From: Chitinophagaceae bacterium
Lineage (GTDB): Bacteria > Bacteroidota > Bacteroidia > Chitinophagales > Chitinophagaceae
Assembly: GCA_947450165.1 (NCBI GenBank)
Contig: CANFUJ010000010.1
Coordinates: 1 to 32,161 of the forward strand
Direction of reading: 5' to 3'
Length of the DNA: 32,161 bases
Both the position numbers and the translations under genes were made by a program. The notes under the pieces are model-generated. The model saw only the letters and a list, made by a program, of their open reading frames with translations, made no database searches and was not told the DNA's origin. Each line of letters starts with the position of its first letter. Within the stretch, counting starts at the first letter, position 1. This document shows, one piece after another, positions 10,153 to 32,161 of this stretch.

Positions 10153-10241
10153 AACCTATTTTTCAGGTTGAAAATCTTCAAACCTCATAAACCTCTTATA
10201 AGGGTTGAAAATGTTCAACCTCTACAAACCTCAATCACCTT
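10153..10241. repeat. Degenerate 9-bp repeat array upstream of mnmA
   Basis: On the plus strand AACCTC-like cores start at 10181, 10190, 10217, 10227 and 10236 (spacings 9, 27, 10 and 9). An AACCTA core lies at 10153. Between them sit GTTGAA and TTCAAC words that form small hairpins. The reverse strand reads GGTTTGAAG-like units, the same family as the arrays near 14100, 16070 and 32100. It ends about 8 bp before the mnmA -7 element. Confidence 0.65.
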
Positions 10242-10248
10242 TAATTCC

Positions 10249-10256
10249 TATCTTTG
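10249..10256 (+). promoter_or_regulatory. -7 promoter element of mnmA
   Basis: TATCTTTG is a perfect TAnnTTTG element 15 nt before the ATG at 10272. It contains the alternative TTG start at 10254, which makes that upstream start unlikely. No -33 TTG is visible; the expected place is occupied by the 9-bp repeat array. Confidence 0.5.
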
Positions 10257-12716: not shown

Positions 12717-12750
12717 CTTTCTGAATTTCTATTTTTTATGATTGATTTTA

Positions 12751-12781
12751 TTGTTAAAAACAATCGTTCTTTCTACATTTG
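12751..12781 (+). promoter_or_regulatory. Promoter of icd
   Basis: TTG at 12751-12753, a 20-bp spacer, then TACATTTG at 12774-12781. The -7 box ends 20 nt before the ATG at 12802. Any start further upstream would lie in or before the promoter, so 12802 is the better start. Confidence 0.65.
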
Positions 12782-12801
12782 TTCCAAATAAAAACCAACT
12801 C

Positions 12802-14067
12802 ATGTCTACTAAAATCAGCATGGGAAACGATGGCAAACTCCACGTTCCCAACAACCCCACTATTCCATTTATTGAAGGCGACGGCATTGGACCAGACATT
12901 TGGGCTGCAAGTGTTCGTGTATTCGATGCGGCAGTTGAAAAAGCATACAGCGGTGAACGAAAAATAAATTGGCTTAAAGTATTAGCCGGAGAAGAGGCAT
13001 TTGTAAAAACAGGCACTTGGATGCCGGAAGAAACCATGCAAGCTTTTAAAGATTATCTCATTTCTATAAAAGGACCATTAACCACTCCAGTTGGCGGAGG
13101 CATAAGAAGTTTAAATGTAGCATTGCGCCAAGAATTGGATTTATATGTTTGCTTGAGACCAGTAAAATATTTTGAAGGAACGCCATCACCAATGTGGCAA
13201 CCCGAAAAAGTAAACATGACTATTTTTAGAGAAAATACTGAAGATATTTATGCTGGGATTGAATACATGACGGGTACTCCAGAAGCAAAAAAACTATTAC
13301 AATTTTTAGTAGAGGAAATGGGGGTAAAAAATCTTCGTTTCCCTGATAGCACTTCGTTTGGGATCAAGCCAGTGAGCAAAGAAGGCAGTGAACGATTGAT
13401 TCGATCAGCTTTACAATTTGCCATCAACAACAAAATGCCATCACTGACCATAGTGCACAAAGGCAATATCATGAAATTTACAGAAGGCGCTTTTAAAAAC
13501 TGGGGCTACGAATTGGCAGAAAGAGAATTTTCGGGAGATGTATATACTTGGCGCCAGTGGGAAAAAACAAAAGCGGAAAGTGGTGAAGCCGTTGCCAATG
13601 AAGAAATGCGCATCAGTGCTATCGGAGGAAAAGTAATTGTGAAAGATGCCATTGCCGATAATTTTTTACAACAAGCGTTATTGGCACCTCAAGATTATAG
13701 CGTAATTGCCACGTTGAATTTGAATGGCGATTATATCAGTGATGCATTGGCCGCACAGGTTGGTGGCATTGGCATTGCGCCTGGTGCAAATATTAATTAC
13801 ATCACCGGTCATGCTGTATTTGAAGCCACGCACGGCACTGCACCACGTTTTGCAAACACCAACACTATGAATCCAAGTTCGGTTATTCTCAGCGGTGTGA
13901 TGATGCTCGAATATATGGGTTGGAGAGATGCCGCCGATTTAATCACAAATGCCGTTGGCAAAACAATCCGCAATAAAACAGTTACCATTGATTTTTATAA
14001 CTTAATGAAAGAAGGTACACTGTTAAAAACCAGTGAGTTTGGGGATGCGATTGTGGCGAAAATGTGA
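12802..14067 (+). CDS. icd: Isocitrate dehydrogenase, bacterial (E. coli-like) type
   Basis: A 421-residue TCA-cycle enzyme that oxidatively decarboxylates isocitrate to 2-oxoglutarate. Substrate-site features of the E. coli-type family are present: GDGIGPD (26-32), [10 protein letters not shown] with Ser103 (the phosphorylated Ser113 in E. coli), [11 protein letters not shown] with Tyr150, [12 protein letters not shown] with Lys220, and the FEATHGTAP loop. The residues that bind the NADP 2'-phosphate in E. coli (Lys344, Tyr345, Val351, Tyr391, Arg395) align here to Arg349, Phe350, Met356, Ile396 and Asn400. Two key contacts are therefore lost and cofactor preference is uncertain. The promoter supports the ATG at 12802. 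A second, unrelated-type isocitrate dehydrogenase gene converges on it from 15819. Confidence 0.96.
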
Positions 14068-14079
14068 GGGGTATAAGAA

Positions 14080-14133
14080 GTTCAAAAGGTTCAAGAAGTT
14101 CAATGCGTTCAAAAGGTTGGAAGAGTTTTCCAA
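14080..14133 (+). repeat. 9-bp phased repeat array after icd
   Basis: Units start exactly 9 bp apart at 14080, 14089, 14098, 14107, 14116 and 14125. The first four begin GTTCA (for example GTTCAAAAG, GTTCAAGAA, GTTCAATGC), then GTTGGAAGA and GTTTTCCAA. The stretch 14098-14123 is repeated perfectly, in inverse orientation, at 16028-16053. The array starts 12 bp after the icd stop codon. Confidence 0.85.
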
Positions 14134-14161
14134 TTACTAGCATTTTGGTTTATAAAAAACT
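14115..14161 (+). repeat. Outer direct repeat, copy 1 (about 46 bp)
   Basis: GGTTGGAAG, two variable bases, TTTTCCAATTACTAGCAT and on to ATAAAAAACT. It recurs with four or five changes at 14357-14402, 242 bp downstream. The two copies bracket the pair of palindromic repeats. Confidence 0.75.
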
Positions 14162-14162
14162 G

Positions 14163-14226
14163 CCATTGGCGCCGGTTTCCAAACCGGTGTATAAGAGAGA
14201 TTTTAGTCGCAGACTGGATTTTTAAG
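14163..14226 (+). repeat. Palindromic repeat, copy 1
   Basis: The first 41 bp are identical to copy 2 at 14266. It contains the perfect hairpin CCGGTTTCCAAACCGG (14172-14187) and, 20 bp on, a second small hairpin AGTC-GCA-GACT. It resembles a REP-type element with two stems, and it lies where a terminator for icd would be expected. Confidence 0.75.
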
Positions 14227-14228
14227 AA

Positions 14229-14250
14229 GTTCAATGAGTTCAAAAGGTAT
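14229..14250 (+). repeat. 9-bp phased repeat, short array
   Basis: GTTCAATGA at 14229 and GTTCAAAAG at 14238, followed in register by GTATT at 14247. It separates the two palindromic repeats. Confidence 0.65.
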
Positions 14251-14265
14251 TATTATCCTGAAAAT

Positions 14266-14327
14266 CCATTGGCGCCGGTTTCCAAACCGGTGTATAAGAG
14301 AGATTTCAGTCTTAGACTGAATTTTAA
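14266..14327 (+). repeat. Palindromic repeat, copy 2
   Basis: The hairpin CCGGTTTCCAAACCGG recurs at 14275-14290, exactly 103 bp after copy 1. The second hairpin here is TTCAGTC-TTA-GACTGAA. Its loop differs from copy 1 while the stem is kept, with T-G wobble pairs in copy 1 becoming Watson-Crick pairs here. Confidence 0.75.
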
Positions 14328-14330
14328 GAA

Positions 14331-14375
14331 ATTGAATAGGTTCAATGAGTTCAAAAGGTTGGAAGGATTTTCCAA
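14331..14375 (+). repeat. 9-bp phased repeat array
   Basis: Units start at 14331, 14340, 14349, 14358 and 14367 (ATTGAATAG, GTTCAATGA, GTTCAAAAG, GTTGGAAGG, ATTTTCCAA), exactly 9 bp apart. The last two overlap the outer direct repeat, copy 2 (14357-14402). Confidence 0.75.
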
Positions 14376-14399
14376 TTACTAGCATCTTGGTTCATAAAA

Positions 14400-14476
14400 A
14401 ACTTTGTGTCTTAGTGTCTTTGTTTTTCTTGCCTTCACAACTTAGCGCCTTTGTGTCTTCGAGTCTTTGTGTTTCC
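14400..14476 (-). repeat. 8-bp phased repeat array (CACRAAGA family), left copy
   Basis: On the plus strand GTGTCT-like words start at 14406, 14414 and 14422, then after one 7-bp step at 14429, 14437, 14445, 14453, 14461 and 14469. The minus strand reads AGACACAA-like units. The same family lies in the opposite orientation at 15871-16021, across the isocitrate dehydrogenase gene. Confidence 0.8.
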
Positions 14477-14502
14477 TGCCCTCGTATCAAAATTATTCGC
14501 AC

Positions 14503-14554
14503 AAAAAAAGGTTTATGATTTTTAAATGAAATTCCATGCTAAAAATCATAAACC
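14503..14554 (-). terminator. Strong intrinsic terminator of the second isocitrate dehydrogenase gene
   Basis: A perfect 14-bp stem (GGTTTATGATTTTT at 14510-14523 with its complement at 14541-14554) around a 17-nt loop. On the minus strand it is followed by seven T residues (14503-14509). It lies 32 nt after the stop codon at 14587. Confidence 0.85.
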
Positions 14555-14586
14555 CTTTAATAATAAATCGTAACGATAAAACGTGT

Positions 14587-15819
14587 TTATAAACCCATTC
14601 TCTTTTTCAAATTCTCATCAATTGCATCTAAAAATTCTTCAGTGTACAAATAATGATCTCCGTGAGATACTTTATTGCCGTGGATACAAACCGCTAAATC
14701 TTTTGTCATTTTTCCGCTTTCAACAGTTTCGATACAAACTGCTTCTAAGGCATTACAGAAATCAATCAACTCCTGATTGTTATCTAATTTACCACGGAAT
14801 GCCAAACCTCTTGTCCATGCAAAAATAGATGCAATTGGATTTGTACTGGTTGGTTTTCCTGCTTGATGATCACGATAGTGACGTGTAACCGTTCCATGAG
14901 CAGCTTCCGACTCCATTGTTTTTCCATCAGGTGTAACCAACACTGAAGTCATTAAACCTAATGAACCAAAACCTTGAGCAACAGTATCGCTCTGAACATC
15001 ACCATCATAATTTTTACAAGCCCAAACAAAGTTTCCGTTCCATTTTAAAGCACTAGCAACCATGTCATCAATCAAACGATGCTCGTAAGTGATGCCTGCA
15101 GCTTCGTATGCAGCTTTAAATTCATTTTGATATACTTCTTCAAAAATGTCTTTGAAACGTCCATCATATTTTTTAAGAATGGTATTTTTTGTAGAAAGAT
15201 ATAAAGGCCATTTTTTACTCAATGCCATGTTGAAGCAACTGCGTGCAAATCCAAAAATACTTTCATCGGTATTATACATTGCCATTGCAACACCATCACC
15301 TTTGTAATTATATACTTCAAATACTTGAGCTTCTCCACCACCTTCAGGAGTGAACGTCATGGTTAATTTTCCTTTTCCTTTGATAACGGTATCGGTTGCA
15401 CGATATTGATCACCAAAAGCATGACGACCAACAATGATAGGTGCAGTCCAGTTTGTAACCAAACGAGGTACATTTTGCATTACGATTGGTTCTCTAAAAA
15501 CCGTACCATCAAGGATATTACGAATCGTTCCATTAGGGCTTTTCCACATTTGCTTCAAGCTGAATTCTTTCACACGTGCTTCATCGGGTGTGATGGTAGC
15601 ACATTTGATACCGACTCCACAAGCTTTAATTGCATTTGCAGCATCAATGGTAACTTGGTCATTGGTTTCATCGCGATACTCCATTCCTAAATCATAATAT
15701 TGAATAGGCACTTCGATGTAAGGAAGAATCAATTTGTCTTTGATAAATTTCCAGATGATGCGCGTCATTTCATCACCATCTAATTCCACTACGGGATTTG
15801 CAACTTTTATTTTTGACAT
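14587..15819 (-). CDS. NADP-dependent isocitrate dehydrogenase, eukaryote-like (IDH1/IDH2) type
   Basis: A 410-residue homodimeric-type enzyme of the subfamily found in mitochondria, the eukaryotic cytosol and many Bacteroidota. Numbering matches human IDH1 in the N-terminal part: [11 protein letters not shown] (72-82) with Thr77, [11 protein letters not shown] with Ser94 and Arg100, FRE with Arg109, and [10 protein letters not shown] with Arg132. This is a full isocitrate site, so an active NADP-linked enzyme is expected. It has a strong terminator and a -7-like element, and converges on the bacterial-type icd gene. The gene is flanked on both sides by mirrored 8-bp and 9-bp repeat arrays, including a perfect 26-bp inverted repeat (14098-14123 and 16028-16053). 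Confidence 0.96.
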
Positions 15820-15838
15820 GGCTTAAATTTTTGAATCG

Positions 15839-15846
15839 CAAAAGTA
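15839..15846 (-). promoter_or_regulatory. -7 promoter element of the second isocitrate dehydrogenase gene
   Basis: The minus strand reads TACTTTTG, a perfect TAnnTTTG match, 19 nt before the start codon. The nearest TTTG upstream is 25 bp away, longer than the usual 19-20, and lies inside the 8-bp repeat array. Confidence 0.45.
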
Positions 15847-15870
15847 GGGAAAAAACTGTTTGTTTCATGC

Positions 15871-16021
15871 GCAAAGGGAATTGAAACACGAAGATGAAAT
15901 GCTTGCAGCATTTTTTTGACTCGAAGACGCGAAGGGGTTGAAACACGAAAGCACCAAGACACGATGTCACGAAGTTTTTTTATTTCACGCAAAGCTCGCA
16001 AAGGAGCAAAGACGCAAAGAA
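15871..16021 (+). repeat. 8-bp phased repeat array (CACRAAGA family), right copy
   Basis: Units in exact 8-bp register start at 15920, 15928, 15936, 15944, 15952, 15960 and 15968 (CTCGAAGA, CGCGAAGG, GGTTGAAA, CACGAAAG, CACCAAGA, CACGATGT, CACGAAGT). Others lie at 15871-15894. A GCAAAG-type run starts at 15989, 15998, 16006 and 16014. The array is inverted relative to the left copy at 14400-14476. Confidence 0.8.
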
Positions 16022-16027
16022 TAGATA

Positions 16028-16113
16028 CTTCCAACCTTTTGAACGCATTGAACATCACAAACCTCTCAAACATCACAAACCTCTTAAATCTCCTTAACCT
16101 CCCTAACCTCTCT
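16028..16113 (-). repeat. 9-bp phased repeat array running into the rlmL-like gene
   Basis: On the plus strand AAC cores start at 16033, 16042, 16051, 16060, 16069, 16078, 16096 and 16105, with AAT at 16087: nine units in exact 9-bp register. The stretch 16028-16053 is the perfect inverted copy of 14098-14123. The array crosses the stop codon of the methylase gene and encodes its last residues. Confidence 0.85.
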
Positions 16114-17265
16114 CGTCCCCGCATACAACTCATACTCAAATAATCGGCAATCTATTTTTCCGGTGTAAAACTCAATTCTTCTTTTTGGTTTTAATCCAAT
16201 TTTTTTGGCCAATTCTAAATTGCCGGTGAAAATACAACCCCAATATCCTTTACATTTTTGTTTTAAAAAATCGCCCATTCTTGAATAGGTTTCTTCCAAT
16301 TCAATTTCATCTCCCAAACGATCACCATATTCTGGATTGAAGTAAATAACCCCTGCTTCGTTTTCAGGAATAGTTGTAGATGCAAAATCACAAAGCTCAA
16401 ATGTGATTATATCTTCAACACCTGCAATGCCCGCGTTTACTTTCGAAATATTTACGGCATCTTCACTAATGTCTGAAGCGATGATTTTAACCGAACAATT
16501 TTCAATAACTGCAGTTTCAATTTCTTTGTAAAAATTCAAATAGAATGATTCATCATACCCACATAGATGCATAAACGAATAGTTACTTCTATACAAACCT
16601 GGCTTACGATTGCTGGCCAATAAAGCAGCTTCAATGGCAAGTGTACCAGAACCACACATTGGATTTATAAACGCAGATTTCCGATCCCATTTTAATGCCA
16701 ACAAATTGGCTGCTGCCAAAGATTCAAGCATTGGCGCTTTTCCTGGAATTTTTCTATATCCATGCTTCGACAATGTTTCTCCACTAGTATCTAAAAATAA
16801 TTCTGCAATAGTTTCTTTCCAATATAAATGAACCACTACCCCATTTAGCTCAGGACCTGAATTTGGACGCACACCCGTTTTTTCTCTGAACCTATCTGCT
16901 ATGGCATCTTTAACCTTAACATTGGCAAATAAATTATTGGTGATTGTTTCATTGGTTACATTACTCGTGATTGAGAAGTTTTCTTCCGCTGGAATTATTT
17001 TTTCCCATTCAACTTTTACAAGCGCATTGTATAAATCAGATGCATTATGCGCAGTAAATTCTTTAATAGAAAACAACACCTGGCTCGCACAACGTAAATT
17101 TAAATTCAACCGAATACAATCCTGCATCGTTCCAAATAACTCCACACCTGTTTTGAAAATTCTAACTGGAACAAATCCGAGTTCAGAAATTTCTTGTTGT
17201 AAATAATTTGATAACCGATTGCTACAGGTAACAATGATGCGGCTTTGCAAAGAAAATAAATTCAT
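16084..17265 (-). CDS. rlmL: THUMP-domain class I SAM-dependent RNA methyltransferase, RlmL-like
   Basis: A 393-residue cytoplasmic enzyme matching the N-terminal methylase half of E. coli RlmKL, which makes m2G2445 in 23S rRNA. A THUMP/ferredoxin-like RNA-binding region covers residues about 1-160. The Rossmann methylase follows, with NPMCGSGTLAIEAA (201-214), the acidic IIASDISEDA (261-270) and the catalytic FNPEYGDRLG (309-318; NPPY in E. coli). I chose ATG 17265 rather than the ORF start at 17313 because the family begins near this point and the longer form overlaps rfbD. The last residues, REVREVKEI, come from the 9-bp repeat array: each unit encodes three residues. It is the last gene of the polysaccharide operon, 26 nt after rfbD, though functionally unrelated. 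Confidence 0.88.
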   Translation of the reverse strand: MNLFSLQSRIIVTCSNRLSNYLQQEISELGFVPVRIFKTGVELFGTMQDCIRLNLNLRCASQVLFSIKEFTAHNASDLYNALVKVEWEKIIPAEENFSITSNVTNETITNNLFANVKVKDAIADRFREKTGVRPNSGPELNGVVVHLYWKETIAELFLDTSGETLSKHGYRKIPGKAPMLESLAAANLLALKWDRKSAFINPMCGSGTLAIEAALLASNRKPGLYRSNYSFMHLCGYDESFYLNFYKEIETAVIENCSVKIIASDISEDAVNISKVNAGIAGVEDIITFELCDFASTTIPENEAGVIYFNPEYGDRLGDEIELEETYSRMGDFLKQKCKGYWGCIFTGNLELAKKIGLKPKRRIEFYTGKIDCRLFEYELYAGTREVREVKEI

Positions 17266-17291
17266 GAATTGAGTATGAGGATAATAAATAC

Positions 17292-18149
17292 TTACCGTAA
17301 AAGCTCCATACATTTCTGTAAACTATCTTTCCAGTAAGGAATCTGTATATTAAAGGTATGTTCAATTTTATTGGTATTTAAAATTGAATAATTGGGACGC
17401 TTTGCAGGAACAGGATATTCACTAGATGCTATGGGATTTACTGTGCAATTGTACCCACCAATTTCTTTGATAGCCGTTGCAAAATCATACCAAGATATTA
17501 TGCCTTGATTGGCAAAATGATACATGCCTGGCACAAATTCTTTTTCAGAAAAAATGATTTGAAATATTGCTGATGCCAAATCTGCTGCATAAGTTGGTTT
17601 ACCTATTTGATCAGAAACTACATTTAGCGATTCGCGTTCCTGCATCAATTTCATCATTGTTTTTACAAAATTCTTTCCATGATAGCTATATACCCATGAT
17701 GTACGAATAACAATGGTTTCTGGGTTTAATGACAAAGCCAATTTTTCGCCTTCTAATTTTGTGGCACCATATACATTTATTGGAGCAGTAGCATCATCTA
17801 CATCATAGCCGATTTCATTTGTACCGTCAAATACATAATCCGTTGAAATGTGAATTAGCTTACAATTATTTTTATGACAAGCATCTGCTAAATATCCAAC
17901 GGCAGTAGCATTTATTAAATGAGCCAATTCTGTTTCTGTTTCGGCTAAATCTACAGCTGTATATGCGGCAGCATTTATGCAATAATCAAATTTATTTTTA
18001 GAAAATATTTCTGCAACCGCATTACTATCTGTAATGGATAACTCTGCCACATCTGTAAATACAAATTCAGCATTGGCAATGCTTTCAGCTAAAGTTCTAC
18101 ATTCGTTTCCCAATTGACCATTAGCTCCAGTTACAAGAATTTTTTTCAT
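17292..18149 (-). CDS. rfbD: dTDP-4-dehydrorhamnose reductase
   Basis: A 285-residue SDR enzyme that makes the last step to dTDP-L-rhamnose. The NADPH-binding GANGQLG is at residues 8-14; the catalytic segment STDYVFDG (102-109) and the YGATK pair (Tyr127, Lys131) are intact. It follows rfbC by 14 nt. The earlier pathway genes (rfbA, rfbB) are not in the window, so they must be elsewhere or the operon relies on another locus. Confidence 0.95.
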   Translation of the reverse strand: MKKILVTGANGQLGNECRTLAESIANAEFVFTDVAELSITDSNAVAEIFSKNKFDYCINAAAYTAVDLAETETELAHLINATAVGYLADACHKNNCKLIHISTDYVFDGTNEIGYDVDDATAPINVYGATKLEGEKLALSLNPETIVIRTSWVYSYHGKNFVKTMMKLMQERESLNVVSDQIGKPTYAADLASAIFQIIFSEKEFVPGMYHFANQGIISWYDFATAIKEIGGYNCTVNPIASSEYPVPAKRPNYSILNTNKIEHTFNIQIPYWKDSLQKCMELLR

Positions 18150-31978: not shown

Positions 31979-32047
31979 ATTAAAATTACATCATTTTAAT
32001 CTAAATTCTCAACACATTTTTTGTAATTTCGCGCACGGGAGAAAAAA

Positions 32048-32161
32048 GGTTCAAAAGGTTCAAAAGGTTCAAAAGGTTCAAAAGGTTCAAAAGGTTCAAA
32101 AGGTTCAAAAGGTTCAAAAGGTTCAAAAGGTTCAAAAGGTTCAAAAGGTTCAAAAGGTTCA
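32048..32161 (+). repeat. Perfect 9-bp tandem repeat reaching the window end
   Basis: GGTTCAAAA is repeated 12 times without change, plus a partial copy, and continues past the window edge. It follows TAATTTCGCGC, a weak -7-like element pointing the same way. The unit is the exact core of the degenerate arrays near 14100, 14340 and 16050. Confidence 0.95.

What the first reader, a model, noticed from the sequence alone, without database searches (positions are those of the whole stretch)
14080..16113. Family of strictly phased, degenerate 9-bp repeats at several sites
Units related to GGTTCAAAA occur in exact 9-bp register at 14080-14133 (six units), 14229-14250, 14331-14375 and 16031-16113 (nine units), loosely at 10153-10241, and as a perfect array at 32048-32161. 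The degenerate arrays keep the phase while the bases diverge. This suggests either selection for spacing or repeated birth of arrays from a seed followed by decay. It is not a CRISPR array (no spacers), not a transposon, and not protein-coding in most places. A role in chromosome organisation, transcript ends or recombination is conceivable.
Basis: partly seen in the sequence, partly recalled or inferred. Interest (0 to 1): 0.7.

Follow-up and report, generated by a model that had tools for sequence, protein, structure and literature searches.

The report
Gene-edge repeat arrays with fixed polarity
Short, degenerate 7- to 9-base repeat arrays lie in many gaps between genes of this bacterium and its close relatives, and they nearly always point the same way relative to the nearest gene, as if they were one-way barriers that stop stray transcription from running into genes.

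Summary
The 9-bp arrays are real and part of something larger. In samples of this genome and its genus, degenerate arrays of period 7, 8 or 9 lie in intergenic gaps, and their strand follows the nearest gene edge: the strand leaving the gene is G/T/A-rich and nearly C-free (93 of 104 arrays; own genome 27 of 27). This holds for all gene directions and does not depend on which strand carries stop codons. Outside the genus evidence is thin (2:2 in other families). Many nonamer arrays start within 12 nt of a stop codon (21 of 52). Genes before arrays shift synonymously to G-ending codons over their last 16 codons. At one stop codon, relatives carry arrays of unrelated units: composition and polarity are kept, not the unit or the 9-bp spacing. 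RNA made towards the gene is C-rich and G-poor and usually meets a Rho-site criterion (17 of 24 against 33 of 315). Best reading: slippage-built, Rho-loading insulators; polarity is shown, mechanism inferred. The same polarity is published for GGGNATC arrays of Xanthomonas and Nostoc, with quadruplexes suggested; most arrays here lack the G-tracts.

The parts
14017..14067 (+). last 16 codons and stop of the isocitrate-dehydrogenase-like gene 12742-14067, rich in G-ending codons
   Evidence: group statistics
14080..14133 (+). nonamer array, six units of the GTTCAA type, 12 nt after the stop codon, G-rich strand in sense
14115..14160 (+). array end GGTTGGAAG with short hairpin and conserved tail, copied elsewhere in the genome
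14229..14250 (+). short array remnant (two to three units), marginal on its own
   Evidence: p 0.027
14331..14375 (+). nonamer array plus second copy of the hairpin end; mid-gap, does not follow the polarity rule by position
16027..16113 (-). nonamer array, both unit types, overlapping the stop codon (16084-16086) of the methyltransferase-like gene on the minus strand; RNA read on the plus strand has 32 C and 3 G in 87 nt
16084..16134 (-). 3' end of the methyltransferase-like gene 16084-17313: conserved codons shifted to G endings and a repeat-coded tail (REVREVKEI)
10153..10241 (-). loose array with hairpins, C-rich on the plus strand, just upstream of the plus-strand gene starting at 10254; follows the polarity rule
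32044..32161 (+). perfect 13-copy array of AAAAGGTTC running to the contig end, G-rich strand leaving the last gene

Best explanation
The arrays are one form of a one-way composition signal at gene edges. Slippage and copying between sites build short-period arrays whose outward strand is G/T/A-rich and almost free of C. A polymerase entering a gene from outside (antisense at the 3' side, read-through at the 5' side) therefore makes C-rich, G-poor, ribosome-free RNA; Rho loads on it and stops the polymerase, insulating the gene. At the 3' side the signal can reach into the last ~16 codons because antisense RNA of the gene is not translated; at the 5' side it cannot, because inbound RNA there is the translated mRNA. 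Shown here: the arrays, their polarity, anchoring at stop codons, the synonymous codon shift, unit turnover, a rho gene, and sequence criteria of a Rho site. Inferred: that Rho reads them and that insulation is what is selected.
For: Polarity 93:11 over ten sample sets, single-array gaps 48:5 (p 7e-10), G arm left of C arm in 8 of 8 mixed gaps; independent of stop-codon content (28:3 when stops are commoner in the C-rich strand; 11:0 with none in the G-rich strand) and present 40-80 nt from the edge (11:0 stop side, 10:1 start side). 21 of 52 nonamer arrays start within 12 nt of a stop codon. G-ending codons 118/182 and 86/161 in the last 8 and previous 8 codons against 168/646 mid-gene, no shift further upstream, and no such extension at gene starts. 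Unrelated units at one orthologous stop codon. RhoTermPredict-like first step met inbound by 17 of 24 array ends, outbound by 0 of 24, inbound by 33 of 315 array-less ends. Inbound RNA of 16027-16113 folds at -0.8 kcal/mol. Rho present, 637 bits. Arrays are commonest in convergent gaps: 17 of 57, against 15 of 82 and 9 of 92 tandem and 7 of 70 divergent.
Against: No transcript data. The Rho criterion is crude and depends on base composition: 42 of 88 array-less E. coli ends pass it in antisense, 28 in sense. The inbound RNA of the other array, 14071-14160, holds a hairpin and folds at -9.3 kcal/mol. Published Rho spacing rules (C every 11-13 nt; YC with 9-13 nt between) do not ask for periods of 7-9. 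Intrinsic terminators are not significantly rarer beside arrays (p 0.22 and 0.59). Polarity is lost beyond 80 nt on the stop side (1:4) and undecided in other families of the order (2:2). The codon shift is not confined to array genomes: G055, G054, G043 and G004, with 0, 1, 0 and 1 arrays seen after stop codons in the sample, also rise before gaps (0.65 against 0.50, 0.31/0.18, 0.40/0.27, 0.46/0.37). Arrays near start codons may lie in the leader itself. Nostoc, which lacks Rho as I recall, has the same polarity.
Confidence: 0.42

Rival explanations
1. Neutral minisatellites: slippage and copying fill gaps with arrays, and an unknown strand-asymmetric mutation process at gene edges gives the polarity and the G-ending codons without any function.
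For: Rapid turnover of unit number and sequence; perfect array at 32044-32161; array-free gaps show a mild skew of similar sign in several classes.
Against: Polarity is set by the gene edge and not by transcription direction (start and stop sides agree), so a transcription-coupled bias does not fit simply; the codon shift ends sharply 16 codons from the stop and is absent at starts.
Confidence: 0.28
2. A dispersed, mobile-like composite repeat (arrays + hairpin) that inserts next to stop codons in one orientation.
For: Similar composites at many places (59 matches), with shared order of units; sense orientation next to stop codons.
Against: Arrays of other units and periods obey the same polarity (7-mers 39:5, 8-mers 9:0); insertion does not explain synonymous changes upstream; no empty site was seen in 30 ortholog pairs.
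Confidence: 0.12
3. Quadruplex or R-loop element: the outward G-rich strand or RNA forms a structure that acts on polymerase or RNA decay, as proposed for GGGNATC arrays.
For: Same polarity as GGGNATC arrays (PMC4692102); 33 of 104 arrays have at least four GG tracts.
Against: Only 1 of 104 has four GGG tracts, and arrays with fewer than four GG tracts still follow 62:9.
Confidence: 0.08
4. Artefact of stop codons and gene calling: arrays carry stops on one strand, which truncates or limits gene calls.
For: Some arrays supply the stop codon themselves (window 16084-16086; L035, L042, L150). MacGregor 2015 makes this argument for TAACTGA repeats (passages).
Against: The rule holds when stops are mainly in the other strand (28:3), when the G-rich strand has none (11:0), and 40-80 nt from the edge.
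Confidence: 0.04

Closest known systems
GGGNATC / GGGGA(C/T)T heptamer arrays of Xanthomonas and Nostoc (Rehm et al. 2015, PMC4692102: abstract, sections 15 and 16 and passages read)
   Same: Short-period non-coding arrays; G-rich strand in sense within 50 bp of stop codons and in antisense within 50 bp upstream of genes; inverted pairs; same gene neighbours but varying length between relatives; function left open.
   Different: Different units and periods (7, 8, 9), mostly without quadruplex capacity; no four-unit preference was looked for here; extension into codons and a Rho reading are not in the parts I read ('Rho' 0 occurrences).
TAACTGA direct repeats of Beggiatoaceae, Cyanobacteria and some Bacteroidetes (MacGregor 2015, PMC4679880: abstract and passages read)
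   Same: Dispersed intergenic heptamer arrays, some in Bacteroidetes, some overlapping stop codons.
   Different: One fixed unit, mostly just upstream of start codons in the host studied, proposed as translational binding sites.
Rho utilisation (rut) sites (criteria from passages of PMC6407284 and PMC9160355)
   Same: C>G, G-poor RNA with repeated cytosines over about 80 nt.
   Different: Here read inbound to genes, built of tandem repeats; no termination shown; periods 7-9 are not the published spacing.
REP/palindrome elements (GTAG/CGTC-tagged repeats, PMC3733652: search listing only)
   Same: Dispersed, extragenic, near gene ends; palindromic elements are interleaved with the arrays at 14163-14334.
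   Different: The arrays themselves are tandem repeats, not palindromes.

Membership tests
GGGNATC-type quadruplex arrays | heptamer with G-tracts able to form G-quadruplexes | tested here: not met
   1 of 104 arrays has four GGG tracts; 71 of 104 have fewer than four GG tracts
GGGNATC-type quadruplex arrays | G-rich strand outward: sense near stop, antisense near start | tested here: met
   93:11
TAACTGA repeats | unit TAACTGA | tested here: not met
   window units are GTTCAATGA- and GAGGTTTGT-like
Rho utilisation site | 78-nt window, C/G above 1, C every 11-13 nt (first RhoTermPredict step) | tested here: met
   17 of 24 array ends inbound, 0 of 24 outbound, 33 of 315 array-less ends inbound; not specific in E. 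coli (42 of 88)
Rho utilisation site | little RNA structure | tested here: inconclusive
   -0.8 kcal/mol for 16027-16113 inbound, -9.3 for 14071-14160 inbound
Rho utilisation site | host has Rho | tested here: met
   TIGR00767, 637 bits over the cut-off of 509, G000:C6:13360-15015
Rho utilisation site | Rho-dependent 3' ends observed | not testable with these tools
   no transcript data
Intrinsic terminator | GC hairpin followed by T run at array ends | tested here: not met
   1 of 24 array ends; insensitive finder
CRISPR array | repeats separated by unique spacers | tested here: not met
   head-to-tail 9-bp units without spacers
Known structured RNA | Rfam gathering score | tested here: not met
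   0 matches in the window
REP / RAYT element | tagged palindrome with associated transposase | not tested
   arrays are not palindromes; a transposase was not searched for

The most novel reading that the evidence does not exclude
A general rule of bacterial genome layout: intergenic DNA is selected to be C-poor on the strand leaving a gene so that inbound RNA is a termination substrate. Short-period arrays of arbitrary sequence are its quickest evolutionary solution, built again and again in Bacteroidota, Xanthomonas and Nostoc, and the signal reaches into the codons of the gene.
Probability: 0.25. Interest if true: 0.85.

Novelty: new variant of a known kind. Interest (0 to 1): 0.62.

Why it matters
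It gives a sequence-independent rule (polarity set by the nearest gene edge) for repeats usually passed over as noise, links them to codon choice at gene ends, offers an alternative to quadruplexes for polar heptamer arrays in other phyla, and makes a testable claim about how AT-rich bacterial genomes keep incoming transcription out of genes.

Tried and rejected
Intrinsic-terminator replacement: not supported (1 of 24 array ends against 47 of 315, p 0.22; convergent gaps 7 of 18 against 27 of 56, p 0.59). Stop-codon or gene-calling artefact: refuted for the bulk. Quadruplex: not needed. Rfam: nothing at the gathering score in the window. Codon extension at gene starts: none clear. Array gain or loss between own and G069: none in 30 ortholog pairs sampled. 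The correlation of codon bias with downstream G-C in two sets of loci (rho 0.63, n 20; 0.44, n 25) mixes different genes (10 of the 20 end in the recognisable IDH1 C-terminus), so it is a hint only. My patterns found the IDH1 C-terminus in 11 of 30 loci and the methyltransferase C-terminus in 6 of 30. Literature: ten searches of an open-access library listed no paper whose title or abstract start describes these nonamers, the unit-independent rule or the codon extension.

Biases: genes are from my own codon-usage caller. Own sample: 428 of 2629 kb (first 20 kb of C1-C9 and C11-C20, all of C47, the window); C47 was taken because it held arrays. G069: 18 stretches obtained of 20 asked; 10 of the 18 were picked because matches fell there. 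Named loci were chosen by the pattern. Densities are therefore inflated; polarity should not be. Arrays with equal G and C were dropped from polarity counts; arrays in genes are not in them. On rechecking I lowered the probability of the general case from 0.30 to 0.25 because other families gave only 2:2 and show a codon rise without arrays.

Full report
WHAT IS THERE. The window is the whole of contig C10 (32161 bp) in a 2.63 Mb, 237-contig genome. A same-genus genome, G061, has a contig of 175436 bases, the length of a named Chitinophagaceae contig (CANGYR010000004.1), so I take the genus to be Chitinophagaceae (inference). The period-9 arrays at 14080-14133, 14331-14375, 16031-16113, 10153-10241 and 32048-32161 exceed a Markov null; 14229-14250 is marginal. 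51 window positions reach the lag-9 threshold against a mean of 0.04 in shuffled sequence; 396 kb of other stretches hold 16 period-9 and 12 period-7 regions against none in one shuffled copy. The exact double unit occurs 25 times in the genome on four contigs, and in 4 of 59 genomes searched, own included. BLAST with 14076-14160 hits 12 of 59 same-genus genomes, own included. The exact triple unit is found in 23 stretches of a species-wide collection, 18 of them labelled as Bacteroidota groups.

ANATOMY. On the G-rich strand the usual order is (GAGGTTTGT)n, (GTTCAATGA)n, GGTTGGAAG plus a short hairpin, then often an 8-bp-type block (TTTGTGTC) or palindromes. 59 BLAST matches to 14060-14240, some to its palindrome part only, and a shared order of units (17 copies picked by their hairpin junction) show copying of composites between sites.

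ANCHORING. Of 52 merged nonamer arrays outside genes (own 428 kb and G069 340 kb), 34 have a same-strand gene on their 5' side, and 21 of 52 start within 12 nt of its stop codon or overlap it. For the 47 with both neighbours known, 19 do so against 1.69 on average (maximum 8 in 10000 draws) for random place and orientation in the same gap. Only 1 of 32 arrays facing an opposite-strand gene has its other end within 45 nt of that stop codon.

POLARITY. A motif-blind scan (periods 6-12) of gaps of 60 nt or more in ten sample sets (16 genomes) found 104 arrays with unequal G and C, of period 9 (48), 7 (45), 8 (9), 10 (1) and 12 (1). Arrays nearer the left gene are G>C on the plus strand (43:8), those nearer the right gene C>G (50:3): ++ 31:4, +- 26:2, -- 23:2, -+ 13:3. 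By genome: own 27:0, G069 38:7, G061 11:0, G018 10:1, G022 2:0, G004 1:1, G009 1:0, G026 1:0, G062 none, seven genomes of other families together 2:2. Single-array gaps follow 48:5; in 8 of 8 gaps with both kinds, G lies left of C. Six thresholds on seven of the sets give between 75:15 and 49:4. Contigs chosen for holding the triple unit, mostly other Bacteroidota, follow 23:7. The strand leaving the gene is T 37, A 30, G 25, C 7 percent. In the window, 14080-14133, 16027-16113, 10153-10241 and 32044-32161 follow the rule; 14331-14375, in mid-gap, does not.

NOT A GENE-CALL ARTEFACT. Where stop codons are commoner in the C-rich strand the rule holds 28:3; with no stop in the G-rich strand 11:0; 40-80 nt from the edge 11:0 (stop side) and 10:1 (start side); beyond 80 nt it holds on the start side (13:2) but not on the stop side (1:4).

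INTO THE GENE. Before a G-rich 3' array (38 genes; own, G069, G018, G061), G-ending codons make up 118/182 in the last eight codons, 86/161 in the eight before, then 38/139 and 32/131, against 168/646 mid-gene. Genes before array-free gaps (311) rise less: 477/1272 against 1326/5262. Genes with a close same-strand follower do not rise (110/588). G026 and G062, almost without arrays, and E. coli show no clear rise, but G055, G054, G043 and G004 do rise before gaps though few or no arrays were seen there, so the codon effect is wider than the arrays. In the conserved end LFEYELYAG of the methyltransferase-like protein, own and G069 use G-ending codons at 6 of 7 and 5 of 6 scored sites; G024 and G071, with a hairpin terminator by eye and no array, at 3 of 6 and 2 of 6; G012, with a G/T tract, at 4 of 6; but G030, without an array directly there, at 6 of 7.

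TURNOVER AT A FIXED PLACE. After the stop codon of the isocitrate-dehydrogenase-like gene, 6 of the 11 genomes whose end I could locate carry arrays, of unlike units: own and G030 nonamers, G004 TGAATTA, G005 TTTGGCG (by eye), G009 GTTTAAG-like, G061 GAAGATTT; G076 has a nearly C-free tract without an array; four have neither. G069 has a nonamer array of other units. Of 30 sampled ortholog pairs own/G069, three own genes have arrays and all three have array-like flanks in G069 (two by the caller, one by eye); the other 27 have none in either.

MECHANISM. A home-made version of the first RhoTermPredict step (criteria from passages of PMC6407284) is met inbound by 17 of 24 array ends, outbound by 0 of 24, inbound by 33 of 315 array-less ends before gaps; in GC-richer E. 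coli it is unspecific (42 of 88). Inbound RNA of 16027-16113 has 32 C and 3 G in 87 nt and folds at -0.8 kcal/mol; that of 14071-14160 folds at -9.3 because of its hairpin. The genome has rho. Rho is reported to suppress antisense RNA and read-through into convergent genes (PMC9931155 passages). No codon extension on the start side fits, since translated RNA is closed to Rho (established knowledge).

KNOWN OR NEW. The same polarity was reported in 2015 for GGGNATC-type arrays in two Xanthomonas and one Nostoc genome, with quadruplexes suggested and function left open (PMC4692102); 'Rho' does not occur in its main text. Here quadruplex capacity is mostly absent. What I have not seen described, within ten searches of one library, is the unit-independent rule in Bacteroidota, the codon extension and the Rho-insulator reading.

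Noticed in passing
14163-14230 and 14266-14334: Two copies of a palindromic element (GGCGCCGGTTTCCAAACCGGTG...AGTC..GACTG) interleaved with the arrays; also repeated on contig C69 and elsewhere in the genome. Looks like a REP-type element; no transposase was searched for.
   Followed up: partly
14403-14480 (+) and 15900-16020 (-): Degenerate 8-bp-type blocks (TTTGTGTC / GACACGAAG) that often follow the nonamer hairpin; neither strand is clearly G-poor (by eye; one search lists period 8 at 14402-14420 and 15998-16021).
   Followed up: no
L078, L079, L081, L082: A GC-rich element (CTCACCCCCAACCCCTCTCC...GGAGAGGGG) recurs in gaps of several relatives, in places where the own genome has arrays.
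   Followed up: no
L089, L091 (G024, G071): The corresponding gene ends in array-less relatives have a clear hairpin-plus-T-run terminator (ACCTTCGGATTATCCGAAGGT).
   Followed up: partly
array-free gaps of own and G069: Array-free gaps also show a mild skew of the same sign in several classes (divergent 0.21 left, -0.09 right; convergent near zero), so composition polarity may not need arrays.
   Followed up: partly
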